From the NCBI RefSeq assembly GCF_001027545.1, contig NZ_CP009498.1:1240001-1304000 (forward strand): a stretch of DNA of 64,000 bases, given 5' to 3'. Source of the DNA: Endomicrobium proavitum. Lineage in GTDB: Bacteria; Elusimicrobiota; Endomicrobiia; Endomicrobiales; Endomicrobiaceae. The position numbers and the translations under genes are program-made. Within the stretch, counting starts at the first letter, position 1. Every line of letters begins with the position of its first letter. The notes beneath the pieces were generated by a model. It did no database searches. It saw nothing but the letters and a program-made list of their open reading frames with translations, and was not told the DNA's origin. Below are positions 4,967-61,290 of this stretch, piece by piece.

Positions 4967-5265
4967 TATCTCTCTTTTACTCTGGTTTACTTTACGACTT
5001 ACGCTTCTTTTGCAGCGTATTTGCCGATGCAAAAAGTTCAGAATACTTTATTTTAATTACGATTTACTAATGACAAATTATGAATCAACATGCAACAACA
5101 AATACCCCGTCAGGCTTCGCCTGCCTCCCCTTTTGCAAAAGGGGAATTAACGACTCGTGCTCCTTACTCCTTTCTACTTTCTACTTTATAACAACTTGCT
5201 CCTTACTCCTTCCTACTTTCTACTTTAACAACTTGCCGTTTCTTATCCTCCTACCATCTTCTTCT
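4967..5265. repeat. Repeat-filled gap between pstS and pstC
   Basis: About 300 bp without a gene. It holds a CCCCTTTTGCAAAAGGGG palindrome preceded by ACCCCGTCAGGCTTCGCCTG (5102-5142), then ACTCGTGCTCCTTACTCCTT and repeated CTTTCTACTTT blocks (5150-5275). The same modules recur at 38515-39060 and 42503-42711. Transcription from pstS must cross it to reach pstC, and the palindrome may attenuate it. Confidence 0.7.
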
Positions 5266-6084
5266 CTACTTTAACGGAACAAAGCCAAGTTCTGCCGCCG
5301 CTTTTTGTCCGTCTTTGCTTACCACGAAATCTATATACTGTTTTACCGCGCCTTTCGCAGGGCCGTTTGTGTACATAAACAAAGGTCTTGAATAAGCGTA
5401 CGTATTGTTTAAAACAGTTTCTACCGAAGGAACTACTCCGGCAACTGAAACGGTTTTTACTTTATCGCCGAGATATCCCAAGCCTACATAACCTATTGCG
5501 CCTTCTGTTGTAGCTATTATATTTGCAACGCCCTGATTTGAAGCCTGCATAAGAGCGTCTTTGCTTACTTTTGCGTTGCCCAGCGCAAGTTCGTTAAACG
5601 CTTCAAACGTTCCGCTGGCGCTGTCGCGCGATACTACTACTATTTTTACGTCCGCGCCGCCGAGCTCTTTCCAATTTTTTATTTTGCCGGTAAAGATATC
5701 TTTTACCTGCTGCTTGCTTAAAGCTTTTACCGAATTTTTGTTGTTTACTATTAAAGCTATTGCGTCCATGGCAACTACGTAAGCTTTAGGACGAATATTT
5801 TTTTGCGCGCCTTTAACAATTTCGCTTTCTTTTATTGAACGCGAAGCGTTAGCCGCATTGCAGCGTCCGGAAAGAAGAGAGTTAATGCCTACTCCCGATC
5901 CGCCGCCTCGGACGCTTATATCTATGGACGGATTGTTATCCATAAAAAGTTCTGCAGTTTTCTGCGCTAACGGAAGAACCGTGGTTGAACCTTCAAGAAT
6001 AACCGAATCTTTTGCAAAAACGCTTGCCGCGCACGCTGCGCTTAATACTAACGATAAAAACAATTTTGAAATTTTATGTTTCAT
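5266..6084 (-). CDS. pstS: Phosphate-binding periplasmic protein PstS
   Basis: About 272 residues, starting at MKHKISKLFLSLVLSAACAASVFA. This is a clear signal peptide ending in AxA, preceded by AAAGGAGAT; a longer start at 6114 adds only an unlikely basic leader. The mature protein shows the type-II phosphate-binding pattern: ILEGSTTVLPLAQ near the N-terminus, the SVRGGGSGVGI loop, and VSRDSASGTFEAFNEL around residue 150, whose Ser/Arg/Asp/Thr residues bind phosphate in the family. It delivers phosphate to PstCA. It follows the porin by 30 bp, so outer- and inner-membrane uptake steps appear co-transcribed. Confidence 0.95.
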   Translation of the reverse strand: MKHKISKLFLSLVLSAACAASVFAKDSVILEGSTTVLPLAQKTAELFMDNNPSIDISVRGGGSGVGINSLLSGRCNAANASRSIKESEIVKGAQKNIRPKAYVVAMDAIALIVNNKNSVKALSKQQVKDIFTGKIKNWKELGGADVKIVVVSRDSASGTFEAFNELALGNAKVSKDALMQASNQGVANIIATTEGAIGYVGLGYLGDKVKTVSVAGVVPSVETVLNNTYAYSRPLFMYTNGPAKGAVKQYIDFVVSKDGQKAAAELGFVPLK

Positions 6085-6114
6085 TTTATATCTCCTTTTA
6101 ATTTGCCGACACAT

Positions 6115-7392
6115 TTAGAATTTGTAATTCAATTCCGCCTGCGCAAGGCTTTGCTCTCTGTTTGCTCCGGTAATTCTGCGGTAGTTAAAATAATTTATTC
6201 CAAGCGACGTATTTTTTGTTAAACCGAAAGCGAAACTTGCTTCATAACCTTTTACGTCGGGCTGTCCTTCGTAAACGTCCGTGTTGCCAAGACCGAAAGG
6301 AATTGCGGTAGCTTTAATAAATCTGCTTGCTACGGAAAGCGTCCAATCGCCGAAATTTGCAACTTTATCGTCCCCTAAACCAAAGCCGTATAATCCGGCT
6401 TCGTTGGCGCCTTTATACACGCTGTCGTTTAAGTTTTTGGAATATTCGCAAAATAAAGAAAAACCGTATTTGCCTACAACTTCTTTAACTTTTATTTCTA
6501 TAGAAGGGTTAAGCAATTGGAAGTTTGTTTCGTTCGTATAAGTTGTAGAGCTTCCCAAATACTTTCCGGTTTCATTTGAAATGTTTGCAAACGCAGTTGC
6601 GGCGTTATTGCTTGGATAACCTATTCTGCCTCTTGTATTAAACTGCTGGTAACCTACGGCCGCTTTTACGCTTACGTTTCCGTTTTTATAAGTTACGCCG
6701 GGCTGCGCAATATAAACGTCCGGCATATCTGCGCCGAATCTTACGTCTCCGTTAAGAGTAAGCCATGCTATATTTCCGAAATAACCGAAACCTGAACCTA
6801 TGTTGCCTTCGGTATTAAACGACGCCCCGTCCGGATTTACGTCGCTTTTCCAGATAAGCTGTCTCAAGTTCCATGTTACCAAACCGGATTTAATTTTACC
6901 GACGTTTATTTGTCCGACTCCGTCTATGTTATATGACAAATAAGCGTGGTCAACAAAAATAGGGGCTTTGTTAAAAGCTCTAACGGTAAAGTTTGCGGAC
7001 GTAGGGTTTAAATCTTCCCCGTTAGCCGTGCTTCCCGTAGCAAGACCGAACGCGGCTTTCATGTTTTCTATAACTCTTGTTTCAACTGCGAAACGCAATC
7101 TTATTCTTTCTCTGTTTCTTGTGCCCGTTGCAGTCCAGTCCATTTGATGTCTAAGTCTTACGTCGCCGCTAAATTTCAGATTTTGCACCCATTGAGGAAC
7201 TCCCGCCTGACTGCCTGCCGCGGTTAAACTTTTTACGTCTTCGTTTGTTTCAGTTATAATCTGCCGACCTTCTCCCGCCGAGATAATGCCTTTTTCTACA
7301 AGCTTGTTTACAAGCCCGTCAATTTCAGACGCGTTAACAGCTTGGGTAAACGCTATAACGCACGCCGCCGCAAGTAAAAACACTTTCTTCAT
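6115..7392 (-). CDS. Outer-membrane porin, probably phosphate-induced
   Basis: About 425 residues starting at MKKVFLLAAACVIAFTQAVNA (signal peptide). GGGAGG precedes the ATG; the start at 7422 lacks this. After the signal comes a short helical segment, IDGLVNKLVEKGIISAGEGRQI. It resembles the N-terminus of the Porin_5-type putative porins, where it may anchor to peptidoglycan. The rest alternates aromatic and polar residues in about 16 beta-strand-like segments and ends in LNYKF, a typical C-terminal barrel signal ending in F. Its position between phoR and pstS suggests a phosphate-entry role like OprP/OprO, though I see no sequence proof of anion selectivity. Confidence 0.8.
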   Translation of the reverse strand: MKKVFLLAAACVIAFTQAVNASEIDGLVNKLVEKGIISAGEGRQIITETNEDVKSLTAAGSQAGVPQWVQNLKFSGDVRLRHQMDWTATGTRNRERIRLRFAVETRVIENMKAAFGLATGSTANGEDLNPTSANFTVRAFNKAPIFVDHAYLSYNIDGVGQINVGKIKSGLVTWNLRQLIWKSDVNPDGASFNTEGNIGSGFGYFGNIAWLTLNGDVRFGADMPDVYIAQPGVTYKNGNVSVKAAVGYQQFNTRGRIGYPSNNAATAFANISNETGKYLGSSTTYTNETNFQLLNPSIEIKVKEVVGKYGFSLFCEYSKNLNDSVYKGANEAGLYGFGLGDDKVANFGDWTLSVASRFIKATAIPFGLGNTDVYEGQPDVKGYEASFAFGLTKNTSLGINYFNYRRITGANREQSLAQAELNYKF

Positions 7393-7479
7393 TTTTTCCT
7401 CCCTTTGTTTTAACTTCGCCAAAAGTATAGAAAAAATGAATTAGGATAAATTGAGATAATTGTTTGTTTTTTGTGAGAT

Positions 7480-9207
7480 TTATTTTGAGGGAAGTTGAGG
7501 GATTTGAATTGTAAAAACTGTTCCTTCGTTTAAACTGCTTTCTACTTTTACGACGCCGCCGTGGAGATCTACTATATGTTTTACTATGGAAAGCCCAAGC
7601 CCCGTGCCGCCCGTTTTGCGCGAACGTGATTTATCTATTACGTAGAAACGTTCAAAAATTTTATCCAAATGTTCTTTTGCCATTCCTATGCCGGTATCTT
7701 TTATTTTAAAAACGGCTATGTTATTTTCAAGCGACGCCCAAACGCTTACGCTTCCTTTCTCGGTATATCTTAACGCATTGTCTATAACGTTAGACAAAAC
7801 CTGACTAAGTCTGAATTTATCGGCCGTTAAAGTTACATTCTGCGCGCATTCAAAAGAAAGTTTTATATTTTTAGCCGCGGCTTTCTCCTGAAATAAAACC
7901 TGCATTTGGGCAAACAAATCTTTTAACCGGAATTTTTCAAGAGTTAGCGCGCGTTTATTTTCCGTTGCGGATAAAGTCATAAGGTCGTTTACTATGTCGG
8001 AAAGACGCTGCGTGTTTTTGCTTATTACGGCAAGATGCCGTTTTAACGTTTCAATATTATTTTCTTCTTCGGAAAGTTCAAGATACAATTTAATGGACGC
8101 AAGCGGAGTTTTAAGTTCGTGGGAAACGTTGCCTACCAAATCTTTTTTAAAACTTTCTATGTTTTTCATATCCGTAATATCGTGAAAAACTATTACAAAA
8201 CCGCTTTCGCTTTTTATGCGGGCTATTGTGCAAGAGTAATATTTATTTTTGCGGTCAAACAAAAACGTTGACGGGCGCTCATAATTTTTTATATGACTGT
8301 CAAAAATTTTTCCGTCAAAAAGCTGCCAATAGTAAACGTCTTTAAAAGCGGCTTGCCAAAACTGCTCCAAAAAAGACTTATTTGCAAGAATTATTTTTCC
8401 GGCGCCGTCTATAACCATAATGGCGTCGGACACGGAACTTATTATTTTATCCAGCTCGTCTCTTGCGTTATCGGTTTGTTTGAAAGTTTCATACATCTGC
8501 TCGGACATAATATTAAAAGTGTTTGAAAGCTCTTCAAGCTCGTCTCCGGATTTAATGTCGGAACGTATATTAAAATTTCCTTTTGATAGCTCTTCAAACG
8601 CATTTTTAAGCTTCATGGTGTTTTTACCTACCGTTCTTGAAAGAAAAAACGACACAATAAGCGAAAACGCAATTATTATAACAAGCATTAAATAGTTTCT
8701 GGAAATAAATTCATATGAAAAAACGGAAATATTTTTCAGCGGCATGCTCATTCTTAAAACGGCTACTTCGTTATTTTTATTGTAAAGCGGCATAGCCACA
8801 TATAACAAATCTTCATTTAAAGTAACGCTTCTTCTTACGGAAACGGAATCTTTGCCGTTAAAAGCCGAGGACACTTCCTCTCTGTTTAAATGGTTTTCCA
8901 TATCTTTCGGGTTTTTTAAAGAGTCGGCTATAACGTTGCCGGAAGCGTTTATTACGGTTATGCGGATGCTTGTCCCTTTGACGTTTCTCTTTACATAATC
9001 GTCAATTTCTTTGTATTTGCCGCCGTTAAAAAGTTCGGCAATATCGGAAGATATTATTTTGCCGTCGGTTGTAAGCATATTTGTAAAAATACGCATATTG
9101 TTTGCTTTTACATTGTAATTAGCGGCAACAACAAATAATACTCCTATAAAAAGAGCTTTTAATAAATATGAAAAAAATAATTTTTTGGACAGGCTGTTAA
9201 TCTTCAA
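7480..9207 (-). CDS. phoR: Phosphate-regulon sensor histidine kinase PhoR
   Basis: 575 residues. TM1 is at about 10-30, followed by a periplasmic domain to about 170, TM2 at about 172-191, HAMP at about 192-245, PAS at about 250-345, HisKA with the phospho-accepting His in VGNVSHELKTPLASIK (about 360), and HATPase with N, G1 (KDTGIGM) and G2 (TGGTGLGLSIV) boxes. The start is TTG at 9205-9207, overlapping the end of phoB by 11 bp with AGGA upstream. PhoR senses phosphate status through the Pst/PhoU complex and phosphorylates PhoB. A full periplasmic domain makes it more like Bacillus PhoR than the short E. coli form. Confidence 0.92.
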   Translation of the reverse strand: MKINSLSKKLFFSYLLKALFIGVLFVVAANYNVKANNMRIFTNMLTTDGKIISSDIAELFNGGKYKEIDDYVKRNVKGTSIRITVINASGNVIADSLKNPKDMENHLNREEVSSAFNGKDSVSVRRSVTLNEDLLYVAMPLYNKNNEVAVLRMSMPLKNISVFSYEFISRNYLMLVIIIAFSLIVSFFLSRTVGKNTMKLKNAFEELSKGNFNIRSDIKSGDELEELSNTFNIMSEQMYETFKQTDNARDELDKIISSVSDAIMVIDGAGKIILANKSFLEQFWQAAFKDVYYWQLFDGKIFDSHIKNYERPSTFLFDRKNKYYSCTIARIKSESGFVIVFHDITDMKNIESFKKDLVGNVSHELKTPLASIKLYLELSEEENNIETLKRHLAVISKNTQRLSDIVNDLMTLSATENKRALTLEKFRLKDLFAQMQVLFQEKAAAKNIKLSFECAQNVTLTADKFRLSQVLSNVIDNALRYTEKGSVSVWASLENNIAVFKIKDTGIGMAKEHLDKIFERFYVIDKSRSRKTGGTGLGLSIVKHIVDLHGGVVKVESSLNEGTVFTIQIPQLPSK

Positions 9208-41419: not shown

Positions 41420-42502
41420 GGGTTAATGTTCAAAAAGTGTGGTTTTTTTGGGGTTTTTAAAGAAAAAAAACCATTTAACAAAAGCGATTTTATGTTTTTT
41501 AGTAAGCCCATTATGACGGCGTATATTTTCTTTTAATGTCTTAAATAGATTTTCTAAATAATTCGTATTGCTTGCTATTTGACGATCTTTTAAAAAATAG
41601 AAAATATCTTTTAACGAGTCTTTTAAAAAAGTATTTGCTTTGTTTATTTCTTTGTATTCATAGCTTTCATTTGGCAAAGATTTTATAAAAGGTTCATATT
41701 TCAAACGCCAGTTTGTGTAAGCATTTTCAAATTCTTCTTTATTCTTTTGGCTTTTAATTCTTGAGCAGGCAATGGCAATGCTTTTTAAGTCTTGCGCCGC
41801 TTTTGTCTTAGAGTTTTTATGCAAAAACCTGATTGTTTGGAAACTGGCATGGATCAAACATCTTTGCATTATGGCATTAGCCCAAACATCTTGAAAGACT
41901 TTCAATATTGTTTGATTCGCGTCGGAAATTAAAACTTTTGGTCTTAATCCAAATGCTTTTAATCTGTCAAAATAGTTTCTTGCTTGCTGATAGTTTTCGC
42001 TTCTAACAAATTCGCAGAAAAATATCTTTTTTGTTTTGTTATCAGCCAAAACCAAAAAGCAATTGCCTCTGTGAAAATATGTTGCATCATAAAGAACATG
42101 TGTGATTTTTGACAGCTCTTTTTCATCACAAAGATTAGGCTCTTTTGAAAGCCAGTATTTAAGTGTCCTTCTAATTGTAGATTGCGAATGCTCTGACAAT
42201 TTTGATAATTGTTTTACAGTGTAGCCTTGTGTAATCCACAATTTAAACCAAACTTTCTGTTTCTTGAGTTTGTTGCTACGGTTCTTCCAAATAAATGTTC
42301 TTAAGCATTTAAGACACTTAAATCTTGTTTTGTTTTGCTTTGTTTTTCCATGAATTCTTACGGCATTGCTTTTACAATACTTACAGCGTTTTTAACACGT
42401 TTATTAAACCCTTTTGATAATCATTGTATCAATATTTCTTTTTGTCGTCGTAATCTGGTTAGAAAAATACCTCTTTTAACCACACTTTTTGAACATTAAC
42501 CC
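41420..42502 (-). mobile_element. Complete insertion sequence with 25-bp TIRs and 7-bp target duplication
   Basis: The left end GGGTTAATGTTCAAAAAGTG + TGGTT (41420-41444) is the exact reverse complement of the right end (42478-42502). TTTATAA flanks both sides (41413-41419 and 42503-42509). Removing the IS and one copy restores a CCCCTTTTTATAAAAGGGG palindrome that belongs to a dispersed host repeat. The element encodes one MULE/IS256-like transposase. Confidence 0.9.
41423..42241 (-). CDS. IS transposase (MULE-type DDE, IS256/IS1249-like), possibly missing its start
   Basis: 272 residues from a TTG at 42241, with a helix-turn-helix (VKQLSKLSEHSQSTIRRTLKYWL) and DDE catalytic residues in VLYDATYF, LISDANQ and NTNYLENLFK. 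The C-H pair MQRCLIHA is typical of mutator-like enzymes. The frame stays open 50 codons further upstream to 42391 and encodes a zinc ribbon (KRCKYCKSNAVRIHGKTK...FKCLKC), which such transposases need for DNA binding. That stretch begins right after a TAA and has no ATG, GTG or TTG. Either an A-rich frameshift site or an unusual start produces the full protein, or the gene is newly inactivated. Confidence 0.75.
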   Translation of the reverse strand: MWITQGYTVKQLSKLSEHSQSTIRRTLKYWLSKEPNLCDEKELSKITHVLYDATYFHRGNCFLVLADNKTKKIFFCEFVRSENYQQARNYFDRLKAFGLRPKVLISDANQTILKVFQDVWANAIMQRCLIHASFQTIRFLHKNSKTKAAQDLKSIAIACSRIKSQKNKEEFENAYTNWRLKYEPFIKSLPNESYEYKEINKANTFLKDSLKDIFYFLKDRQIASNTNYLENLFKTLKENIRRHNGLTKKHKIAFVKWFFFFKNPKKTTLFEH

Positions 42503-45395: not shown

Positions 45396-48204
45396 ATTCT
45401 GACGGGACTAAAAAAATGGATTTGTTATAATATCGGCGCTCTGAACCCATTTAACATCCGGGTTCTGACGGGACTAAAAAAATGGATTTGTTATAATAAA
45501 GCAAAACTACAAAGAATAAAAGCAAAAGTTCTGACGGGACTAAAAAAATGGATTTGTTATAATAATTAAGGTGCATTTATTTAACGCTCAATTGTTCTGA
45601 CGGGACTAAAAAAATGGATTTGTTATAATTGGGAAAGGGAAAAATTTAACACTGCCGCAGTTCTGACGGGACTAAAAAAATGGATTTGTTATAATGACGC
45701 AGCGGAATACGTTTGCACAGCGCGTGTTCTGACGGGACTAAAAAAATGGATTTGTTATAATAAATATGAACTCAATAAACAGCTTCCTACAGTTCTGGCG
45801 GGACTAAAAAAATGGATTTGTTATAATCCAGCGCATTTGCAATTTCCGGATGATTCAGTTCTGACGGGACTAAAAAAATGGATTTGTTATAATTACAACC
45901 CAAAATTAGCGCACTTAGGCGAAGTTCTGACGGGACTAAAAAAATGGATTTGTTATAATACTTTTAAGGGATTATGTAATTAGCGAGGAGTTCTGACGGG
46001 ACTAAAAAAATGGATTTGTTATAATCCGATACAGGAAGCATCGCAAACTACGGCGGTTCTGACGGGACTAAAAAAATGGATTTGTTATAATCGTATCAGG
46101 TTAAAAGTTCAATGCTTCGTAGTTCTGACGGGACTAAAAAAATGGATTTGTTATAATTTTAAGAGCTACTAATAAAATGATAGGGGGGTTCTGACGGGAC
46201 TAAAAAAATGGATTTGTTATAATTCAATTAATAAATTAGGCGTTGCCGCGCATGTTCTGACGGGACTAAAAAAATGGATTTGTTATAATGGTTGGCGATG
46301 GGAAGATTATCTCAAAGTGGTTCTGACGGGACTAAAAAAATGGATTTGTTATAATCCCTGTTACACTGTAATCAGCAATGCCTTCGTTCTGACGGGACTA
46401 AAAAAATGGATTTGTTATAATAAATCTTTTATCACGTCAATACCTTTATTAGTTCTGACGGGACTAAAAAAATGGATTTGTTATAATAAGGTGAGAGAGC
46501 AATATCACCCTGAATATGTTCTGACGGGACTAAAAAAATGGATTTGTTATAATACATATTGTAGCACAATGTATTTGTCTTGTGTTCTGACGGGACTAAA
46601 AAAATGGATTTGTTATAATCCAACCAAACACCAAACACCGCCGCAAAAAGTTCTGACGGGACTAAAAAAATGGATTTGTTATAATAAAGAATTGGGATTG
46701 GACAAAGCTGAATATGTTCTGACGGGACTAAAAAAATGGATTTGTTATAATAAACAGATGGGCGAAATTGTGAACTTACTTGTTCTGACGGGACTAAAAA
46801 AATGGATTTGTTATAATACAAAAGAAGCGGTTAAAGCAGGCATACTAGTTCTGACGGGACTAAAAAAATGGATTTGTTATAATCGACAATGAATATATAT
46901 CTGTAGATAATGCGGTTCTGACGGGACTAAAAAAATGGATTTGTTATAATGCCCAATTCAATGATTACGTTGAGGTTGAGGTTCTGACGGGACTAAAAAA
47001 ATGGATTTGTTATAATACATATTGTAGCACAATGTATTTTTTTTGTGTTCTGACGGGACTAAAAAAATGGATTTGTTATAATCCATATTGTAGCACAATG
47101 TATTTTTCTTGTGTTCTGACGGGACTAAAAAAATGGATTTGTTATAATAAATCGGCAAATATATTTTTGAAGAGGTGGGTTCTGACGGGACTAAAAAAAT
47201 GGATTTGTTATAATAAAGAATTGGGATTGGACAAATCTGAATATGTTCTGACGGGACTAAAAAAATGGATTTGTTATAATTGAAATTTTGGCGGATACGC
47301 TCTACATTAAGTTCTGACGGGACTAAAAAAATGGATTTGTTATAATAAAGAAGTTGTATTTATATCTTCCGCCTGCGTTCTGACGGGACTAAAAAAATGG
47401 ATTTGTTATAATATTGTGCTATAATATGTCTACAGCAGATAGGTTCTGACGGGACTAAAAAAATGGATTTGTTATAATCGCCAAGTGTTTTGTCCGTTGG
47501 TTGAAATAGTTCTGACGGGACTAAAAAAATGGATTTGTTATAATAGCTGAAACAAACATGCTTGGAAGAGGTGTGTTCTGACGGGACTAAAAAAATGGAT
47601 TTGTTATAATATTTGGCGATTGTAGGTTACGCGCCAAGCAGTTCTGACGGGACTAAAAAAATGGATTTGTTATAATCACGATAAAGCCCGCTGTAATTCA
47701 TCATATGTTCTGACGGGACTAAAAAAATGGATTTGTTATAATGTGCGCTTGGGCGAGCCGCGACGACGAGAAGTTCTGACGGGACTAAAAAAATGGATTT
47801 GTTATAATACGGCGCATTGAGGCGGCTGTTGCCGAATAGTTCTGACGGGACTAAAAAAATGGATTTGTTATAATTTGCCACGAAAAAGAACTGGAAGAGC
47901 GTAGGTTCTGACGGGACTAAAAAAATGGATTTGTTATAATCAGACAAACCCGTTGTAGCGCCCAACGGAGGTTCTGACGGGACTAAAAAAATGGATTTGT
48001 TATAATTTAACTCAATACGTATAACAAATTGCCTATGTTCTGACGGGACTAAAAAAATGGATTTGTTATAATACCATATTGTAACACAATGTATTTTTTT
48101 GTGTTCTGACGGGACTAAAAAAATGGATTTGTTATAATAATATTATTGACAACCCTGCAGCCTACTCGGTTCTGACGGGACTAAAAAAATGGATTTGTTA
48201 TAAT
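45396..48204 (+). CRISPR. Type II-C CRISPR array, 43 repeats, 36-bp repeat, about 30-bp spacers
   Basis: The repeat is GTTCTGACGGGACTAAAAAA followed by ATGGATTTGTTATAAT, with a strict 66-bp period. First repeat 45396-45431 (begins A instead of G), last 48169-48204; one internal copy reads TTCTGGCGGG. By spacing there are 42 spacers. The strand is fixed by the tracrRNA anti-repeat at 48258, which complements this orientation. The repeat 3' end is an extended -10 (TGTTATAAT) in every unit, as in Neisseria II-C arrays, so each spacer may have its own promoter. Several spacers are related (see findings). Apparent proteins across the array (repeated VLTGLKKWICYN) are artefacts. Confidence 0.98.
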
Positions 48205-48256: not shown

Positions 48257-48335
48257 AAGTCCATTTTTTTAGTCCCGCCTCAACTAAAATTAAAACTGTC
48301 TTGCCTCTACTTAAAGGTACGCAAGACAGCTTTTA
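48257..48335 (+). ncRNA. tracrRNA of the type II-C system
   Basis: The anti-repeat at 48258-48285 (AGTCCATTTTTTTAGTCCCG + CCTCAAC) is complementary to the repeat over an uninterrupted 18 bases (CGGGACTAAAAAAATGGA). After a short linker comes the hairpin CTGTCTTGC (48296-48304) / GCAAGACAG (48321-48329), with an inner TAC/GTA pair, and a CTTTT tail. A candidate promoter lies upstream (TTTGTA, 18 bp, TATACT ending at 48251), which would start RNA at the anti-repeat. It is convergent with cas2, and the hairpin may terminate both. Confidence 0.88.
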
Positions 48336-48348
48336 ATTTATCAAACTA

Positions 48349-48702
48349 TTACCAGAACTGCAGTTGGTCGCTTATTTTATCTTCAAATTCAAGCTGCCGG
48401 AGTCCTTTGTCTTTATTTTTTGTTATAGTAATACATTCTTCCCATTGGATATCGGTAATAAAATAACATTGAACATTGCCTGTGGTAGGAGCGATTTTTT
48501 TTATGTCGTTTAAAAACCCTTTCTTCTTGTCTAATGTTACCGCACATCTCGCATAAACAGAATACTGCAACATTAGATAACCCAAATCTAAAAGTCCGTT
48601 TCTAAACTTGGTTGCCTGATGTCTTTCTGCCTTTGTATCTGTAGGCAAATCAAATAAAACAATAAGCCAGCCCATGCGATACCTGCTGTTATTATTTTTC
48701 AT
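48349..48702 (-). CDS. cas2: CRISPR adaptation protein Cas2 (type II-C)
   Basis: 117 residues with the ferredoxin-like Cas2 fold. WLIVLFDLPTDTKAER has the conserved Asp at the end of beta-1 (DLPT), QYSVYARCA is the strand-2 region, and NVQCYFITDIQWEE the next strand. It forms the Cas1-Cas2 integrase that inserts new spacers into the 36-bp array. It overlaps cas1 by 11 bp and is last in the cas9-cas1-cas2 operon, ending 14 bp from the tracrRNA hairpin. No csn2 or cas4 is linked, which defines subtype II-C. Confidence 0.95.
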   Translation of the reverse strand: MKNNNSRYRMGWLIVLFDLPTDTKAERHQATKFRNGLLDLGYLMLQYSVYARCAVTLDKKKGFLNDIKKIAPTTGNVQCYFITDIQWEECITITKNKDKGLRQLEFEDKISDQLQFW

Positions 48703-49606
48703 TGAAAGTAATATCTTTAAGCAATGGTATATAAAGATTGTTTAATGTTTTTGCTCTAAAGCAAGAAGAGAAAGAAGTTATATATTTATCTATGGCAAGG
48801 TTAAAGCTGATATTTTTTGCGCCAAACATATTTATTTTTGAGAAAACTATATCTTTGGCAGCGAATTTTGCCCATTCGTCAATTTGTTTACGCATATTTG
48901 ATTGTCTGAACCTTAACAACATAAAATCACAAAATGGTCTTAAGGGTTCCATAATATCATACACGAGCGGATCTGAACGAAATCTGTACTTGTGGTAAAC
49001 ACCTATCGCCGGATTAAACCCGTGAGCAAGCAGCAATCTGTGAACCATTGCCGCTATTACCGCATATCCGTAATTTAACATTCCGTTTACAGGATCTTGC
49101 GCGCCTTTTGTAGTTCTGCCGCCTGGCGAAGAATGTCCGAATTTTTTGAAATAATATTTCCAATAATGACGCGCGGCATTGCCTTCATCTAAATTACCGG
49201 CTTTGATATATTCCCACAATTTATGCTTGGCATTAATGCCGTCTAAAACACATGCTTGGTTTGAAATTTTTGCTTTAATAATTTCGTCCCAAATTTGGCG
49301 CATATAAAATAAATCTTGAAAAACTTGAATATCTAAAACTTCATTATGAACAACCCTGTGAAGTCCTACGGTTTTTCCAATAGGTTTATAATTGTGGTCA
49401 CAGTGGAGAACAATGCTGTTGTTACGTAATAATGCAGATAAACTTTCTGCAGAAAAACTGACGCCTTTTGCGGCAACTATAACTGCAAGAATATCCTCAA
49501 GCGGAACTCTTCGTTGAGGTTTATCAGGTATGTCGCAGACTAAGCAGCCTCGGTCAACAGAAAGCCTGCTTGCATGATTTAAAATATGAATTATATGGTA
49601 GCTCAT
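48692..49606 (-). CDS. cas1: CRISPR integrase Cas1 (type II-C)
   Basis: 304 residues. Catalytic metal ligands are visible as Glu in NLDEGNAARHYW (about 150), His in GVYHKYRFRSDPL (about 208) and Glu in YDIMEPLRPFCD (about 222), the usual E-H-E set. The sequence style (HIIHILNHASRLSVDRGCLV, PLEDILAVIV) is that of type II Cas1. It catalyses spacer integration with Cas2. Its ATG overlaps the cas9 stop (TAATG), showing translational coupling. Confidence 0.95.
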   Translation of the reverse strand: MSYHIIHILNHASRLSVDRGCLVCDIPDKPQRRVPLEDILAVIVAAKGVSFSAESLSALLRNNSIVLHCDHNYKPIGKTVGLHRVVHNEVLDIQVFQDLFYMRQIWDEIIKAKISNQACVLDGINAKHKLWEYIKAGNLDEGNAARHYWKYYFKKFGHSSPGGRTTKGAQDPVNGMLNYGYAVIAAMVHRLLLAHGFNPAIGVYHKYRFRSDPLVYDIMEPLRPFCDFMLLRFRQSNMRKQIDEWAKFAAKDIVFSKINMFGAKNISFNLAIDKYITSFSSCFRAKTLNNLYIPLLKDITFNEK

Positions 49607-52600
49607 TATTTTTTCTCATAACTTCTCATTCCGCATTGTTCTATTAAAACATTTACGGATTTATCTATTTCTTCCTGCGTGTTTATATCTTCTAATTTAC
49701 AACTGCCATTACTTTTCAATGTCCTCAAAATATAAATCCCGGCTTTTATGTTTTCATAATCTTTTTTTAGTTCAACCAACTGACCTGATTTTAAAAACCT
49801 AACGTCTTTATATTTATTTTCATACAATTTTTTCTTGTTATATATAGACTCAAAAACATAAACAGGCTCAACCCGCCATTTGCCTTTCTCATCTTTATAA
49901 ACAATTTGCCCTTGATGACCTTCTTTGCCTTTTATCCATTGCCCTTTAACACCGTTACTGCCATATTCCCCTATAACATTTTTTATTATTCCGTTAGAAT
50001 TAAAAGTTTCTTCTTTTTTAAATGCTTTAGAGTCCGTCATTGCAATTTGCTTAATTCTTTTGCCGTTATTTGTATATTTATTTAAAAATTCTATCCATTT
50101 TTCTTGTGTTAAACCTTTTTCTTCTAATTTTACTTTCCAATCATTTTTAATTTTCAAATCAAAAATATTAGTTATCTCTTTTTTTGCATCTTCCATTTTT
50201 TCAAATAAAGTAAGATTGCTGTTAAAACGAGAAATAAAATAATAGTATGGTTTGCCGTTTTCATATCTGCTTCTTAAAGCATAAATGGTCGCTCTTAATT
50301 TCGGCTTAATTTGTTTTATTGTTTGAGGAATAATACTTTTTAACTGTTTTACGCAGTAATCTTTATGGAAATAATCAGGCTTTTCTATTATCTCTCTTTT
50401 AGATACTTTAATTTCAGGCAGCATGCTTAAAACAAGCGCATCCAAAGCGTGATGTTTTTTATTTTTTCTGTTCTTTTCTTTTAAACCGGCTTTTTGAGCT
50501 TTTTCAAATTCTTCATCATTTTTATATAACACTCTGTTTAAATCTAATTTAGAGCGAACTGTTGCAGTTTCCCCGCCGGTAAAAAAGAGAATTCTTTTTT
50601 TATCGTCTTTTGTGTTAATTCCAAAACCAAAATATAAGCCTGCTATTGTTTGAGCTAACTTTTCCAAGTAAGAAGTTGCCTGCAAATCTGTTTTTCTCTT
50701 TTCTATATTTTCTGCTTTATCGGAAGTTAAAAGCTCTATTTTTTTACTGTTGGCAGATTTTGAAAAATCAGCGATATTCGCAAGATATGCTTGCCACTTG
50801 CTATTGTCAGAACTTAACCATTCATATGGAGTTCTATCTTTTTTTGTTTGATTTAAAGCGTTTTTAGTTAAAATGAAATTTACAAAAGAATCAGAACCGC
50901 CTTTGCTTGAGGTTCTTGGAACTATATGATCTATTTCATATTGACCTATATTTTCAGGTATTAAATTACGCTTATCACTTGTATCATAAATATCTTTCCA
51001 CTTCTGTTCATTGCCCAATTTTATTTTTATGATATTGGGATCAGAGACAGGCAACCCCATATCTTTTAGCTTTTTAACTGCATCGTCATTGTTTTTCTTT
51101 CCATCTTTTGCTTTTTTTAAATATTCGTCTTTCTTCTTCTTACCCATAAAATCTTCTCTGGCTATTTCAAAAACTACTTTGTCCGGCACACCATACTCTT
51201 TGTTAAATTGATCATCTAATTTTTGCAAAACTTGTTTTAGCATTAGTAATCTGTGGCAAACAATTCTGTTGTTAACCCCTGCAATAATTTCATCTATTTT
51301 TCGCAATGCTTCTTGTTGAGATAATTTTTTATCTTCCTCTCTTGTATCTTGAATACTTATTGAATTCCAATCGTTTGGCATATTAAGTAAAAATCTATAG
51401 TCATCTTTTATAAGTCCTTTTTGCAAATCAGTGTTTTTTGTTTGTTCTACAAGTTCCGCATAATAATTATGCGGGGTTTTGCCTGATAAAATTAAGCTGT
51501 GCAAAATATTTAATGCGGGTTTGCAAAAACTGCTTCTGCCGCCTTCTTTTGGTTTAGCAATTTCTTGTTGCCCGGGATTTACTTCACCGCCAAGAGCATG
51601 AACATAATTTTTCCAGAACGTTTTTGTACAAGGGTTTTGTTTTTTAGCTACTGCTGTTTCTTTTTGTTTTTCATATTCACAAAATTCCGCATATGTTTTA
51701 AAAATTTCATTTATTTGTGCACAGTTTAAACTTTGCGTGGTTGTATTATCTAATGTAAACCTCATATTTTTTAGAGCAAGTAAAAAAGATACTTCTTTAT
51801 TTATTTGCTTTTTTGCATTACAAACATTAAATCTCGGTATTAAACGACATTTTGCAATAATTCTATTATCAAATCTTGGGACTTTTTGCCCTAATAATCC
51901 TTGCCAATCCCAAGAAGTTCCTCTATGGCTTATGTAATTTTCTTTATCTATATCTTTTTTATATTCATATGAAGCATATGCTCTTTGAGCTTGCCCGTAA
52001 AGGACATAATTCTCTTTATCTTTTAGTTTGGGAAATAATTTCGCAGCAGCAGAAAGCAAATCTTTTAATTCCTTTTCTACCAAATCTCTTGACGGAAAAC
52101 ATTTGTCCTCTTGCGGTTTGTTATCTTTATTTCTTGCAGGGCTTGGGTTTTCTGACAATCTGCCGCTTAAGTCTTTTGGATTACTTGGCGACCAAATACT
52201 TTGAATATAAGCTTCGTAATAACATGGATAGTAATATTCTTCTTTATCTGCAAAAAACTCTTTTAGTTTTTCTTCGTATCTTGTTGCGGCATCAGAGTTT
52301 GCTTTTGTGTCAGAATCATAATCTGTAGCCCATGGCAAATTAGCATCATAACCTCTGCGTTGAATTGCAGATCTTATTGCTTTATATATTTGCCAACTTT
52401 CAAGCTTTATACCTTGAAGCAAAGCAATTCTTAAGAGATGTGAAGAATATATTGTTTTATCTTTTGAATTCTTTGGGAGGAATTCTATCAACATTCTGCT
52501 ATCAGGTTTAAGATTGGGATTTTCTTTTGTAGGTTGTGCGGTTTGTAATACTTCTATTCCTGCTTTTTTAGCTTGCTCATTCCACCATTTTTCTCGTTCT

Positions 52601-52776
52601 TTGTGAGCTATTCGTGTGCGGATTTGTCTTCTTTGTGCAGCTGCTTCTTTAACAGATGCAAACTCATTATCTAATAGAAGAGAATTTAAATGTAAAATAT
52701 TTTTACCGCTTCGCACACAAACACCAATACTTCCTGAACCTAAATCAAACGAATATACAAGTTCTTGTTTTGGCAT
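49606..52776 (-). CDS. cas9: Cas9 endonuclease, compact type II-C
   Basis: 1056 residues, within the usual II-C size. RuvC-I has YSFDLGSGSIGV (catalytic Asp about 11). An Arg-rich bridge helix follows (AAAQRRQIRTRIAHKEREKWW). RuvC-II has KVVFEIARED, HNH has YEIDHIVPRTS and later LTKNALNQTKKDRTPYEW, and RuvC-III has NKKHHALDALVLSMLP; all catalytic residues are present. The C-terminal third should recognise the PAM, which cannot be read from sequence. GGAGG precedes the ATG. With cas1 and cas2 it forms a three-gene operon, convergent with array and tracrRNA. The protein should cut DNA matched by the 42 spacers. Confidence 0.98.
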   Translation of the reverse strand: MPKQELVYSFDLGSGSIGVCVRSGKNILHLNSLLLDNEFASVKEAAAQRRQIRTRIAHKEREKWWNEQAKKAGIEVLQTAQPTKENPNLKPDSRMLIEFLPKNSKDKTIYSSHLLRIALLQGIKLESWQIYKAIRSAIQRRGYDANLPWATDYDSDTKANSDAATRYEEKLKEFFADKEEYYYPCYYEAYIQSIWSPSNPKDLSGRLSENPSPARNKDNKPQEDKCFPSRDLVEKELKDLLSAAAKLFPKLKDKENYVLYGQAQRAYASYEYKKDIDKENYISHRGTSWDWQGLLGQKVPRFDNRIIAKCRLIPRFNVCNAKKQINKEVSFLLALKNMRFTLDNTTTQSLNCAQINEIFKTYAEFCEYEKQKETAVAKKQNPCTKTFWKNYVHALGGEVNPGQQEIAKPKEGGRSSFCKPALNILHSLILSGKTPHNYYAELVEQTKNTDLQKGLIKDDYRFLLNMPNDWNSISIQDTREEDKKLSQQEALRKIDEIIAGVNNRIVCHRLLMLKQVLQKLDDQFNKEYGVPDKVVFEIAREDFMGKKKKDEYLKKAKDGKKNNDDAVKKLKDMGLPVSDPNIIKIKLGNEQKWKDIYDTSDKRNLIPENIGQYEIDHIVPRTSSKGGSDSFVNFILTKNALNQTKKDRTPYEWLSSDNSKWQAYLANIADFSKSANSKKIELLTSDKAENIEKRKTDLQATSYLEKLAQTIAGLYFGFGINTKDDKKRILFFTGGETATVRSKLDLNRVLYKNDEEFEKAQKAGLKEKNRKNKKHHALDALVLSMLPEIKVSKREIIEKPDYFHKDYCVKQLKSIIPQTIKQIKPKLRATIYALRSRYENGKPYYYFISRFNSNLTLFEKMEDAKKEITNIFDLKIKNDWKVKLEEKGLTQEKWIEFLNKYTNNGKRIKQIAMTDSKAFKKEETFNSNGIIKNVIGEYGSNGVKGQWIKGKEGHQGQIVYKDEKGKWRVEPVYVFESIYNKKKLYENKYKDVRFLKSGQLVELKKDYENIKAGIYILRTLKSNGSCKLEDINTQEEIDKSVNVLIEQCGMRSYEKK

Positions 52777-52994: not shown

Positions 52995-55900
52995 ATTTCA
53001 ATTCACGCTCCCGTGAAGGGAGCGACCTGACAAACAGGCTGCGGAAGAATTCTGCGCGCGCAATTTCAATTCACGCTCCCGTGAAGGGAGCGACAGAATG
53101 CTAAATAGGGTTCTTGGAATGCCAACTCATTTCAATTCACGCTCCCGTGAAGGGAGCGACCAACCCAATCCGAATGTTATAGCGCCGAGCACAAAATTTC
53201 AATTCACGCTCCCGTGAAGGGAGCGACAGCCTCATTTCGGTTTCCGCGTCTTCCCTTTTTTTATTTCAATTCACGCTCCCGTGAAGGGAGCGACTAACCC
53301 AGCCAAAGAATATCTTGCATTTGGTCGTAATTTCAATTCACGCTCCCGTGAAGGGAGCGACCCTGCCCGAGCGTAGTTATTAGTAAGCTTCGGCATTTCA
53401 ATTCACGCTCCCGTGAAGGGAGCGACAATTGCAGAAGCAAAAGAAGATATGCTTGACGCTATTTCAATTCACGCTCCCGTGAAGGGAGCGACAAAATAAA
53501 CGCTATCATTGATCGTTCTACAATAATTTCAATTCACGCTCCCGTGAAGGGAGCGACTTAAAGATAGGGATGGAGTGGAATGCTTAAACATATTTCAATT
53601 CACGCTCCCGTGAAGGGAGCGACGCCTTCTTCTATCTGCCCTTTCGCCCAAGATTGGTTATTTCAATTCACGCTCCCGTGAAGGGAGCGACTGGATAAGC
53701 AAGGTCTTCAGCACGACCCGATTATTATTTCAATTCACGCTCCCGTGAAGGGAGCGACTAGAAGAGTGTTTAATCCTGAAAACGGCGATGTATTTCAATT
53801 CACGCTCCCGTGAAGGGAGCGACTTGCCGAAGCTTTTAAAAACAGAGATTTAACGCTGCATTTCAATTCACGCTCCCGTGAAGGGAGCGACGGACTAAAA
53901 AATATCTCGCCGGAGATGTAAAGGCATTTCAATTCACGCTCCCGTGAAGGGAGCGACAATTACAGAAAAGTGAGGATGAGTTGATTAGCCACATTTCAAT
54001 TCACGCTCCCGTGAAGGGAGCGACTAAGAGCCCGCGTGCGACGCGTTGCGAATGATTTATTTCAATTCACGCTCCCGTGAAGGGAGCGACTCTATAGTTT
54101 TCGTTGTAGACTCTTGCGTATGCTCATTTCAATTCACGCTCCCGTGAAGGGAGCGACCATCAAAAAAATTTCAAGCAAAACAAAAATTTCAATTTCAATT
54201 CACGCTCCCGTGAAGGGAGCGACAATTCGTAAATGTTATACCGCAGCTAATTGTTGCATTTCAATTCACGCTCCCGTGAAGGGAGCGACAAATATGGTTT
54301 ACCGCTCTGGTCAACCCAATCAAATTTCAATTCACGCTCCCGTGAAGGGAGCGACGACAGCACAGGCACAATGGGATATGCAACATCGCCCATTTCAATT
54401 CACGCTCCCGTGAAGGGAGCGACGAATCTTGCCGGCAAGCCCTGCGATAACCTTTTCAATTTCAATTCACGCTCCCGTGAAGGGAGCGACCTCTCGCAGA
54501 GAAAAATGAAATTATGGAATTGGCATTTCAATTCACGCTCCCGTGAAGGGAGCGACCTTGCTCCTCGTAGTTTTTAAAATATTTTTATAAATTTCAATTC
54601 ACGCTCCCGTGAAGGGAGCGACAAGCCGGTTTTTTTGACGGAGGCGGCGCTAAGGCATTTCAATTCACGCTCCCGTGAAGGGAGCGACGATTTCAAATAA
54701 ATCAATTAGCTGCAAGTCAATTTATTTCAATTCACGCTCCCGTGAAGGGAGCGACTGCCCCCGATATGAGTCCACTTAATAGGTTTCCCAATTTCAATTC
54801 ACGCTCCCGTGAAGGGAGCGACGGTAATTTTCATTATAGACTCTCGCATATGCGCGATTTCAATTCACGCTCCCGTGAAGGGAGCGACCTCTCGCAGAGA
54901 AAAATGAAATTATGGAATTGGCATTTCAATTCACGCTCCCGTGAAGGGAGCGACCTTGCTCCTCGTAGTTTTTAAAATATTTTTATAAATTTCAATTCAC
55001 GCTCCCGTGAAGGGAGCGACAAGCCGGTTTTTTTGACGGAGGCGGCGCTAAGGCATTTCAATTCACGCTCCCGTGAAGGGAGCGACGATTTCAAATAAAT
55101 CAATTAGCTGCAAGTCAATTTATTTCAATTCACGCTCCCGTGAAGGGAGCGACTGCCCCCGATATGAGTCCACTTAATAGGTTTCCCAATTTCAATTCAC
55201 GCTCCCGTGAAGGGAGCGACGGTAATTTTCATTATAGACTCTCGCATATGCGCGATTTCAATTCACGCTCCCGTGAAGGGAGCGACCTCTCGCAGAGAAA
55301 AATGAAATTATGGAATTGGCATTTCAATTCACGCTCCCGTGAAGGGAGCGACCTTGCTCCTCGTAGTTTTTAAAATATTTTTATAAATTTCAATTCACGC
55401 TCCCGTGAAGGGAGCGACAAGCCGGTTTTTTTGACGGAGGCGGCGCTAAGGCATTTCAATTCACGCTCCCGTGAAGGGAGCGACGATTTCAAATAAATCA
55501 ATTAGCTGCAAGTCAATTTATTTCAATTCACGCTCCCGTGAAGGGAGCGACTGCCCCCGATATGAGTCCACTTAATAGGTTTCCCAATTTCAATTCACGC
55601 TCCCGTGAAGGGAGCGACGGTAATTTTCATTATAGACTCTCGCATATGCGCGATTTCAATTCACGCTCCCGTGAAGGGAGCGACCTCTCGCAGAGAAAAA
55701 TGAAATTATGGAATTGGCATTTCAATTCACGCTCCCGTGAAGGGAGCGACCTTGCTCCTCGTAGTTTTTAAAATATTTTTATAAATTTCAATTCACGCTC
55801 CCGTGAAGGGAGCGACAAGCCGGTTTTTTTGACGGAGGCGGCGCTAAGGCATTTCAATTCACGCTCCCGTGAAGGGAGCGACGATTTCAAATAAATCAAT

Positions 55901-58676
55901 TAGCTGCAAGTCAATTTATTTCAATTCACGCTCCCGTGAAGGGAGCGACCGGTAACTCATAATCCTCATAACTTCTCTTGACCATTTCAATTCACGCTCC
56001 CGTGAAGGGAGCGACAATTATCAACTACTTTCAGGAGCGGCAACAAATAATTTCAATTCACGCTCCCGTGAAGGGAGCGACAACGGCACCGACGATAACC
56101 CGGGAATAAAAACGAATTTCAATTCACGCTCCCGTGAAGGGAGCGACCGGACGAGAAATAGCATAAAAATAAAGATAGAGGAATTTCAATTCACGCTCCC
56201 GTGAAGGGAGCGACATCATATTGATGGTTTATGTTTACGTTGTGAGTTATTTCAATTCACGCTCCCGTGAAGGGAGCGACAAGCAAATAATTGCTGACGA
56301 CTTGGAAATACGTTTTATTTCAATTCACGCTCCCGTGAAGGGAGCGACACCAACAGGGCAAAAGATAATGTTTCGTGGATTGATTTCAATTCACGCTCCC
56401 GTGAAGGGAGCGACCGCCAAAGCGACCGTGAAATGATGCGGGGAAGGTTGCATTTCAATTCACGCTCCCGTGAAGGGAGCGACTAAGAACAGAGTAAAAT
56501 ATAATGGTAAAAAATACATTTCAATTCACGCTCCCGTGAAGGGAGCGACAGGTGATAATGTTTTAGCGCGAGTAAATTCTGGTATTTCAATTCACGCTCC
56601 CGTGAAGGGAGCGACTTCCCTTTCTTTTAGCACCGCCCGCCGCCTTTTTATTTCAATTCACGCTCCCGTGAAGGGAGCGACTACCTTACAAAATTAATAA
56701 AAGCGATTGGTATTTTATTTCAATTCACGCTCCCGTGAAGGGAGCGACCAAAACGGATAGTCCGCGGAAATGCTTACAGACGATTTCAATTCACGCTCCC
56801 GTGAAGGGAGCGACTTAATCATACCGCTCTAAAATCTTGTTGTCGTCGATTTCAATTCACGCTCCCGTGAAGGGAGCGACAATAAGGGATTGAGCGTAGA
56901 TCACCTGATACAGGATTTCAATTCACGCTCCCGTGAAGGGAGCGACGCCACCGGCGGACTTGCTCAAGCGTTAGCGCAGAATTTCAATTCACGCTCCCGT
57001 GAAGGGAGCGACCTTTGAGCCCCTCGGCATGCTCTAAAATATATATTATTTCAATTCACGCTCCCGTGAAGGGAGCGACAAGGTAACGGATGCGTTTGCG
57101 GAAAAATATGGGCATTTCAATTCACGCTCCCGTGAAGGGAGCGACCAGCGGATTTTATTTCAGCTTCACTGAATAGATATTTCAATTCACGCTCCCGTGA
57201 AGGGAGCGACGAGAATATTAGCGATATCAGCATCTACTCCGCCATATTTCAATTCACGCTCCCGTGAAGGGAGCGACTTGATAACAACTGCGCACTCCTG
57301 ATAACTTTAAATATTTCAATTCACGCTCCCGTGAAGGGAGCGACTTGATTTTTCTTTTGCTTTAAGCCATACATTGTATATTTCAATTCACGCTCCCGTG
57401 AAGGGAGCGACTTAATTTTAACCTTTTACCTTACTTAAACATTCAATTTCAATTCACGCTCCCGTGAAGGGAGCGACTTTTAATCCTTAATCAATAAAAT
57501 AAGACCAGCTATTTCAATTCACGCTCCCGTGAAGGGAGCGACCAAAGTTTACGACGGGAAAACATACAATGACCCTAAATTTCAATTCACGCTCCCGTGA
57601 AGGGAGCGACTATCACGGCTTCTATTTTTCCACGTTCTGACAAATTTCAATTCACGCTCCCGTGAAGGGAGCGACTTGCGCAGCAGGAGCAATATCAGCA
57701 GACATTAGATATTTCAATTCACGCTCCCGTGAAGGGAGCGACAACGACGCCGTGAGAGCGGGCGAAACATTATTGTTATTTCAATTCACGCTCCCGTGAA
57801 GGGAGCGACGTCCGCCTCAACAGCCTCGGAACGCAATAATAAAATATTTCAATTCACGCTCCCGTGAAGGGAGCGACAAATGATTGAATTGCCGCTTAAA
57901 GCAATGAGCGTATTTCAATTCACGCTCCCGTGAAGGGAGCGACAAAATGATTGAATTGCCGCTTAAAGCAATGAGCGTATTTCAATTCACGCTCCCGTGA
58001 AGGGAGCGACGGGTATAACGTGCTTAACCCCGCAAATATCAACGCATTTCAATTCACGCTCCCGTGAAGGGAGCGACTTAACATTTAATGTATTATCAGC
58101 ATTAATTGCCGATTTCAATTCACGCTCCCGTGAAGGGAGCGACAAAGTTTTATGTATAAAAAATATGGCACTCTTGAAATTTCAATTCACGCTCCCGTGA
58201 AGGGAGCGACTGGGCTGCGGATATTCTTTCTTTTTCATTAATTCAATTTCAATTCACGCTCCCGTGAAGGGAGCGACTAAATAACGCCCGCAATGCTATA
58301 CCGGCAGTTATATTTCAATTCACGCTCCCGTGAAGGGAGCGACGTTGTCCCAAGCGACGATGCGTAGCTGCCCAACGATTTCAATTCACGCTCCCGTGAA
58401 GGGAGCGACCTAATTACATAGTCCCTTAAAAGCCCGTATAAAAGATTTCAATTCACGCTCCCGTGAAGGGAGCGACCTTTTAAATTTTATAATGAAAAGA
58501 TAAGGAGTAATATTTCAATTCACGCTCCCGTGAAGGGAGCGACCAAGCCTCACTTCCTTTCGCTCCTTTCACGCTTTTATTTCAATTCACGCTCCCGTGA
58601 AGGGAGCGACCGCCGTGCTCGCTATTACTTCCAACCGCCCACCCATTTCAATTCACGCTCCCGTGAAGGGAGCGAC
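52995..58676 (-). CRISPR. Type I-C CRISPR array, 86 repeats, 32-bp repeat, 34-36-bp spacers
   Basis: On the plus strand each repeat reads ATTTCAATTCACGCTC + CCGTGAAGGGAGCGAC. The reverse complement (GTCGCTCCCTTCACGGGAGC + GTGAATTGAAAT) is a classic I-C repeat with a CGCTCCC/GGGAGCG hairpin and the ATTGAAA(T) handle. So the array is transcribed leftward from the cas2 side. I counted 86 repeats and 85 spacers, of which about 69 are distinct because of an internal 398-bp amplification. Repeats are essentially invariant at both ends. Apparent proteins (FNSRSREGSD, ISIHAPVKGAT) are artefacts of the repeat. Confidence 0.98.
54491..55949. repeat. 398-bp tandem amplification of six spacer-repeat units inside the I-C array
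   Basis: The spacer beginning CTCTCGCAGAG occurs at 54491, 54889, 55287 and 55685, exactly 398 bp apart. The five spacers after it (CTTGCTCC, AAGCCGG, GATTTCAAAT, TGCCCCC, GGTAATTTTC) repeat in the same order. Three copies are complete and the fourth has four spacers before new sequence starts at 55950. The copies appear identical, so the event is recent. Confidence 0.93.
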
Positions 58677-60246: not shown

Positions 60247-61290
60247 TTATTTTTTTACGCGCTTTATTTTATTTTCAATCTTTAAAAATCTATCATAATC
60301 GCTTTCAAACAATCTGTCTTGCACTATACGATATTTTTCAAATTCGCCTTCCGCAAAAGATTTGGCTATTTCATGCGTAACTTTGCCATTATTCTGTAAA
60401 ACTTCACGCTCATTAAATTTCAAAAAAGAATTTAATTTTTCTGCCCAATCTTTCATATACATCACTTTGCGGCGTTTTGCTTGGTCTTCTGCATAATCTA
60501 AATACATTGCAACAATCCTATTTAAACCATCCAATTCTTCATGATTTAGATAATTTTTTGCAATACTGACATCGTTTTTTCTTATTCTGCCCTGCGGTGC
60601 ATTTTTCCATGAAGTAAGTCCCATACTTGGCTTTTTATGGCCAGCGCGATTATAAATTATTTCAGCGGCGGTTTCCTTTGTAATCGCCCAATGGAGTTTG
60701 TTTTGGACATTTGCAAAAAAGAGTTGTGTAGTTTCGCTATTCACATTATAGTCAGCGCTACACTGCGCATAAATATCGGTGATTTTCTGATAAAAACGAC
60801 GCTCACTTGAACGAATATCTCGTATTCTTTCAAGTGTTTCATCAAAATAATCCTGCCCAAAAATATATTCCGGTTTTTTTAATCGCTCCGCATCAAGCAC
60901 GGAACCTTTCTGTATATATTCCTTAAGAATTTTACTTGCCCAATTACGAAACATTATTGCTCGCTCTGAATTTACACGATAGCCAACTGCAATAACAGCT
61001 TCAAGATTGTAAAACTCAATATTTCTTTTTACTTGACGCGCACCCTCATTTTGAAGTGTTTCCAAAATGGAAACAGTTGAAGTTTTTTCCAATTCACCCG
61101 ATAAGTAAATATTTGACAAATGTTTTGAAATAGCTGCTTTTTGAATATCAAAAAGTTGCGCCATACTATTTTGCGTAAGCCATAAATTTTGCTGTTGGAA
61201 CAACACTTCAACTTTTGGCGCATTACAACCATCGCGATAAATAATAATTTCGCGCCTCTCACCTTCGTGCATTATCAAATCTTTTCTCAT
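60247..61290 (-). CDS. RhuM-family protein inserted in the I-C cas operon
   Basis: 347 residues of the virulence-RhuM family. The N-terminal part has EVLFQQQNLWLTQNSMAQLF and the helix-turn-helix IQKAAISKHLSNIYLSGEL (about 55-75). The conserved middle has FYNLEAVIAVGYRVNS and ERAIMFRNWASKIL (about 92-125). The C-terminal half is helical (HWAITKETAAEIIYNRAG, LNRIVAMYLDYAEDQAKRR). RhuM proteins have no settled biochemical role; they recur on mobile elements and beside type I restriction systems. Here the gene lies between cas4 and cas1, an uninterrupted pair in ordinary I-C loci, and abuts cas1 with no gap. A regulatory or accessory role in adaptation is inference. AAGGAAT precedes the ATG. Confidence 0.85.
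   Translation of the reverse strand: MRKDLIMHEGERREIIIYRDGCNAPKVEVLFQQQNLWLTQNSMAQLFDIQKAAISKHLSNIYLSGELEKTSTVSILETLQNEGARQVKRNIEFYNLEAVIAVGYRVNSERAIMFRNWASKILKEYIQKGSVLDAERLKKPEYIFGQDYFDETLERIRDIRSSERRFYQKITDIYAQCSADYNVNSETTQLFFANVQNKLHWAITKETAAEIIYNRAGHKKPSMGLTSWKNAPQGRIRKNDVSIAKNYLNHEELDGLNRIVAMYLDYAEDQAKRRKVMYMKDWAEKLNSFLKFNEREVLQNNGKVTHEIAKSFAEGEFEKYRIVQDRLFESDYDRFLKIENKIKRVKK

What the first reader, a model, noticed from the sequence alone, without database searches (positions are those of the whole stretch)
46554..48102. Five II-C spacers target variants of one promoter-like element
Spacers at 46554, 47017, 47083 and 48073 share CATATTGTAGCACAATGTAT with one to a few differences. The spacer at 47413 contains ATTGTGCTATAATATGT, the same element on the other strand. 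The reverse strand reads TGCTACAAT or TGCTATAAT, an extended -10. About one spacer in eight thus hits a repeated promoter family, probably multicopy in one invader or shared by a family of invaders. This is unusual concentration on non-coding DNA.
Basis: seen in the sequence. Interest (0 to 1): 0.65.

Follow-up and report, generated by a model that had tools for sequence, protein, structure and literature searches.

The report
CRISPR spacers repeatedly target one promoter
A bacterium's CRISPR array (probably from a termite gut) stored four, probably five, separate memories of one short promoter-like DNA element carried by unidentified invaders, which is a strongly non-random concentration but works within ordinary CRISPR immunity.

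Summary
The II-C array (45396-48204, 42 spacers) has four spacers (18, 25, 26, 41) that are variants of one 30-nt sequence. Spacer 31 overlaps the same element on the other strand (0 of 300 shuffles reach its score). Independent acquisition explains the copies better than mutation of one copied spacer: all four end at the same base on the PAM side, and the one with an internal 1-nt deletion is still 30 nt because it reaches one base further at the far end. On the minus strand the element has an extended -10 (TGYTACAAT), with the ACA of a presumed -35 TTGACA 16-17 nt upstream. Unrelated sites with the same core carry a -35 at that spacing more often than chance (p about 0.001). No protospacer was found in the own genome, about 300 Elusimicrobiota genomes, IMG/VR, GTDB, phages or plasmids, so 'multicopy in one invader' versus 'shared by a family of invaders' stays open. 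The neighbouring I-C array shows a similar habit: two spacers hit the homologous capsid-gene site of divergent pequenovirus-like microviruses. Best reading: recurrent Cas9 immunity against a conserved invader promoter. The kind is ordinary; the concentration is unusual.

The parts
45396..48204 (+). type II-C CRISPR array, 43 repeats of 36 nt, 42 spacers; repeats end in an extended -10 (TGTTATAAT)
46554..46583 (+). spacer 18, family member ACATATTGTAGCACAATGTATTTGTCTTGT
47017..47046 (+). spacer 25, family member
47083..47112 (+). spacer 26, family member
48073..48102 (+). spacer 41, family member with 1-nt internal deletion and one extra base at the 5' end
47413..47442 (+). spacer 31, overlaps the element on the opposite strand (probable member)
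46686..46715 (+). spacer 20, second recurrent site; with spacer 28 differs by one base
47215..47244 (+). spacer 28, partner of spacer 20
48257..48340 (+). tracrRNA: anti-repeat 48257-48284 and terminator-like hairpin; sets crRNA orientation
48349..48702 (-). cas2 (II-C)
48692..49606 (-). cas1 (II-C)
49606..52776 (-). cas9, 1056 aa, HNH and RuvC
52995..58676 (-). type I-C array, 86 repeats; crRNA strand taken from the repeat's canonical ATTGAAAT end (from knowledge); used as comparison

Best explanation
The four main spacers are anchored at a PAM just 3' of ...TTGT on the spacer strand, so these guides end inside the -35 hexamer. Shown: the spacer family, the fixed PAM-side end, crRNA orientation from the tracrRNA, and the -10 with an ACA at the right distance. 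Inferred: that the target is an invader promoter, that its -35 is TTGACA with the first three bases in the PAM flank, and that related invaders rather than one supplied the copies. The likely reason for the concentration is site re-use (a favoured acquisition site, or cleavage-primed re-acquisition after an imperfect match) plus retention of guides against a sequence the invader cannot easily change.
For: Four variants share one fixed 3' end, and the deletion in spacer 41 is compensated at the 5' end so the length stays 30, as expected when length is measured from the PAM on different targets. In the adjacent I-C array a six-unit block repeated up to four times shows no substitution, and only 2 of 43 II-C repeats carry a mutation. 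crRNA orientation: anti-repeat at 48257-48284 that covaries with the repeat in a congener. All five TGNTAYAAT matches in the 42 spacers are in the five family members; the four main members begin, on the promoter strand, with ACA 16-17 nt before the -10. Of 11 distinct sites elsewhere with core ACATTGTGYTAYAATAT, 6 have a -35 of 4 or more matches at 16-18 nt (p 0.0015) and one is a perfect TTGACA-17-TACAAT. Not self: no site with 2 or fewer mismatches in the own genome outside the array. Similar habit in the I-C array: spacers C17 and C28 are homologous stretches of a microvirus capsid gene with differences at third codon positions.
Against: No protospacer found. The outer half of the -35 is unseen. 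The core holds a short palindrome (ATTGT-GCT-ACAAT), so an operator or replication element is possible. Promoter-like words are common in AT-rich DNA. Repeats may stay uniform for other reasons, so their low mutation rate is an imperfect yardstick for spacers.
Confidence: 0.66

Rival explanations
1. Acquisition hot spot: the site lies at a DNA end, replication nick or a previous Cas9 cut in the invader, so spacers come from it again and again; its promoter-like look is incidental.
For: Spacers from both strands overlap at one place; four hits in 42 exceed random site re-use (expected 3e-4 for a pool of 700 sites). Preferential acquisition from DNA ends and next to Cas9 cuts is described for II-A (PMC7105378, PMC8616872).
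Against: A hot spot does not predict TGNTAYAAT in exactly the five family members, nor ACA at the -35 distance. End-driven acquisition usually spreads over hundreds of bases, here it is one PAM site. This may act together with the best explanation.
Confidence: 0.2
2. Array-internal origin: one spacer was copied by recombination and the copies mutated.
For: Block duplication does occur in the neighbouring I-C array.
Against: Those copies are identical. Spacers between the family members are not duplicated. Spacer 41's deletion is offset by an added base at the other end. Spacer 31 is on the other strand with a different flank.
Confidence: 0.06
3. The target is a non-promoter repeat of a plasmid or phage, such as an iteron or repressor operator with palindrome ATTGT-N3-ACAAT.
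For: Perfect 5-bp arms in three members; near-identical repeats with slight variation.
Against: Spacer 31 breaks the palindrome with the change that makes TATAAT; the flanks show no second copy within 30 nt. An operator overlapping a promoter would be compatible with both readings.
Confidence: 0.12
4. Regulatory crRNAs aimed at the host's own promoters.
For: Promoter-shaped target; some CRISPR systems regulate host genes (established knowledge).
Against: Only one own-genome site within 3 mismatches outside the array, and its PAM-side flank does not match.
Confidence: 0.02

Closest known systems
Type II-C CRISPR-Cas with promoters inside repeats (Neisseria meningitidis; Zhang et al. 2013, described in PMC5052741)
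   Same: Cas9, Cas1 and Cas2; 36-nt repeats whose 3' end is an extended -10 (TGTTATAAT); tracrRNA beside the array
   Different: Different phylum; transcription from the repeats was not tested here
Cleavage-primed acquisition by Cas9 (Nussenzweig et al. 2019, described in PMC7105378)
   Same: Would place later spacers near the target of an earlier one
   Different: Shown for II-A; here later spacers hit the same 30 nt, not merely the neighbourhood
Endomicrobiaceae CRISPR loci (PMC11257099)
   Same: The survey lists 11 II-C and 3 I-C systems in 15 MAGs of the family
   Different: The passages read do not report spacer targets or recurrent spacers

Membership tests
Type II-C CRISPR-Cas | Cas9 with HNH and RuvC, plus Cas1 and Cas2 | tested here: met
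Type II-C CRISPR-Cas | No csn2 or cas4 in the operon | tested here: inconclusive
   No room for another gene between cas9, cas1 and cas2; short ORFs between cas9 and the I-C array were not examined (one search used a 110 aa cut-off)
Type II-C CRISPR-Cas | tracrRNA whose anti-repeat pairs with the repeat | tested here: met
   repeat and anti-repeat covary between G000 and G003
Sigma-70-type promoter (the target element) | -10 hexamer, here extended TGNTAYAAT | tested here: met
   all five members
Sigma-70-type promoter (the target element) | -35 TTGACA at 16-18 nt | tested here: inconclusive
   Only ACA lies inside the spacers, at the right distance; unrelated sites with the same core support it
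Sigma-70-type promoter (the target element) | Transcription start just downstream | not testable with these tools
   No target genome known
Multicopy invader promoter family | Several copies within one phage or plasmid genome | tested here: inconclusive
   No fetched IMG/VR stretch held more than one exact core match, but none is a demonstrated target

The most novel reading that the evidence does not exclude
The array records selection for guides against a functionally constrained, non-coding invader promoter, giving the host broad and hard-to-escape immunity to a whole family of invaders, with each new variant re-acquired at the same PAM-anchored position.
Probability: 0.2. Interest if true: 0.6.

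Novelty: new member of a known kind. Interest (0 to 1): 0.4.

Why it matters
If the target is a promoter shared by many invaders, the array is a natural example of immunity focused on a conserved regulatory site rather than on genes, and it gives a sequence handle (TTGACA-16/17-TGYTAYAATATG) and a predicted PAM flank (CAA next to ...TTGT) for finding the otherwise unknown viruses or plasmids of Endomicrobium. It also shows how variant spacers with a fixed PAM-side end can separate re-acquisition from copying within an array.

Tried and rejected
Protospacer searches that found nothing convincing: own genome, 60 relatives and 60 family members with up to 3 mismatches (about the level of the reversed-pattern control apart from the own array), all II-C spacers against 295 genomes of the phylum (best matches low-complexity or with 3 or more mismatches), IMG/VR with the core, with the spacer 31 flank and with codon-degenerate patterns for spacers 20/28, 14 and 17, GTDB (one unrelated Shiella site), phages and plasmids. 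The core in IMG/VR contigs is a chance or convergent promoter core: flanks differ from the spacers. Microviruses as source of the promoter: best match to the 21-mer core in those read has 5 or more mismatches, so rejected for these genomes. The element as a CRISPR repeat of another II-C array (repeats there also end in TGCTACAAT, from memory): rejected because ATATG after the -10 is conserved in all five. Rfam hit in the array is far below its cut-off.

Full report
What is there. The window lies in a complete 1,588,979-bp genome; the size fits Endomicrobium proavitum, which is from memory and not tested. The II-C locus has cas9, cas1 and cas2 on the minus strand and a 43-repeat array at 45396-48204. 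Next to it a tracrRNA lies on the plus strand: its anti-repeat (48257-48284) matches the repeat, and the two differences in the repeat of a congener (G003) are matched by changes in that genome's own anti-repeat. It is followed by a stable hairpin (z -3.1). So the crRNAs read along the plus strand and, by the rule for type II systems, the PAM is on the 3' side of each spacer.

The spacer family. Spacers 18, 25, 26 and 41 differ from one another by two to about four positions; the window holds no other match with up to three mismatches and shuffles give none. Spacer 31 carries 17 nt of the same element on the other strand; its score is not reached in 300 shuffles, though a looser all-pairs test reaches it in 2 of 15. 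The membership of spacer 31 is therefore probable rather than certain.

Independent acquisition. All four main spacers end at the same base (...TTGT). Spacer 41 lacks one base inside its T run, yet it is 30 nt long because it reaches one base further at the 5' end. Copying followed by mutation would have left 29 nt. In the neighbouring I-C array a block of six units is repeated up to four times without a single change. I conclude that the variants come from different target copies. The order in time is inferred only: the left-most repeat is the degenerate one and the right flank AGGATTCACTCTTAAA is conserved in G003, so the right end is probably the young one.

Promoter geometry. On the minus strand the family reads ACAARANAAATACATTGTGYTACAATATGK. 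TGYTACAAT is an extended -10. No other of the 42 spacers has TGNTAYAAT on either strand. The first three bases, ACA, sit 17 nt (16 in spacer 41) before the -10, where the second half of TTGACA belongs. Differences among members are mostly where promoters tolerate them: the N of TGN, the A-rich stretch, the edges, and C/T inside TAYAAT in spacer 31. Eleven distinct viral or genomic sites share the core; six have a -35 of 4 or more matches at 16-18 nt, three of 5 or more, against random positions p 0.0015 and 0.0008; one (L071) is TTGACA-17-TACAAT. These sites are not the targets; they show that this core tends to sit in promoters. Two of these sites share no promoter features, so the core alone is not proof.

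How concentrated. If spacers were drawn at random from about 700 sites, a pool suggested by the one other repeated site (20/28), the expected number of sites hit four times by 42 draws is 3e-4; for an ordinary four hits the element would have to make up about 3% of all sites. Multicopy alone is thus unlikely to suffice unless the invader is small or rich in copies; favoured acquisition, priming and retention are likely contributors. This is an inference: type II priming is documented for II-A, not for this system.

The invaders. The II-C targets were not found. The I-C array gives a clue: spacer C17 matches the capsid gene of Eel River basin pequenovirus (KP087956) at 32 of 35 nt, and C17 and C28 both encode (R)AYARVYNENY(R), scoring 56 against a shuffled maximum of 39. 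They differ mainly at third codon positions and start one base apart. A TTC PAM would account for that offset if the phenylalanine codon is TTT followed by CGA in one target and TTC in the other; this is inference. II-C spacer 9 and I-C spacer C82 overlap over 23 nt with one difference, so both systems sample the same invader. Re-acquisition at homologous sites of divergent relatives is therefore a habit of this host's CRISPR loci, and the promoter family is its strongest case. Whether the promoter belongs to microviruses is not known; those read here lack it.

Verdict. A real, non-random spacer family against a promoter-like element; independent acquisitions very likely, promoter identity likely, multicopy untested.

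Noticed in passing
window 54091-54125 and 54823-54856 (two further identical copies of the latter): Type I-C spacers C17 and C28 match the conserved AYARVYNENYR motif of the major capsid protein of pequenovirus-like Microviridae (32/35 nt to KP087956 for C17), which makes this bacterium a likely host of such ssDNA phages.
   Followed up: partly
window 54459-55917: A block of six repeat-spacer units in the I-C array (C23-C28) is repeated in tandem almost four times without substitutions.
   Followed up: no
window 45960-45989 and 58410-58444: II-C spacer 9 and I-C spacer C82 overlap over 23 nt with one difference: two CRISPR types sampled the same invader region.
   Followed up: partly
window 46554-46715 and 47083-47244: The two recurrent families keep the same order and distance (family, one unrelated spacer, KELGLDK spacer) in 18-19-20 and 26-27-28, which may mean two episodes with related invaders.
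   Followed up: no
window 60247-61290: A RhuM-family gene (PF13310) sits between cas1 and cas4 of the I-C operon.
   Followed up: no
L086 about 3978-8126 (G017:C103): A gokushovirus-like prophage in another Endomicrobiaceae genome, flanked by near-identical dif-like sequences (ACTTAACATWATATATCTTATCGGACA).
   Followed up: partly
window 41423-42241: IS256/Mutator-type transposase about 3 kb upstream of the II-C array.
   Followed up: no
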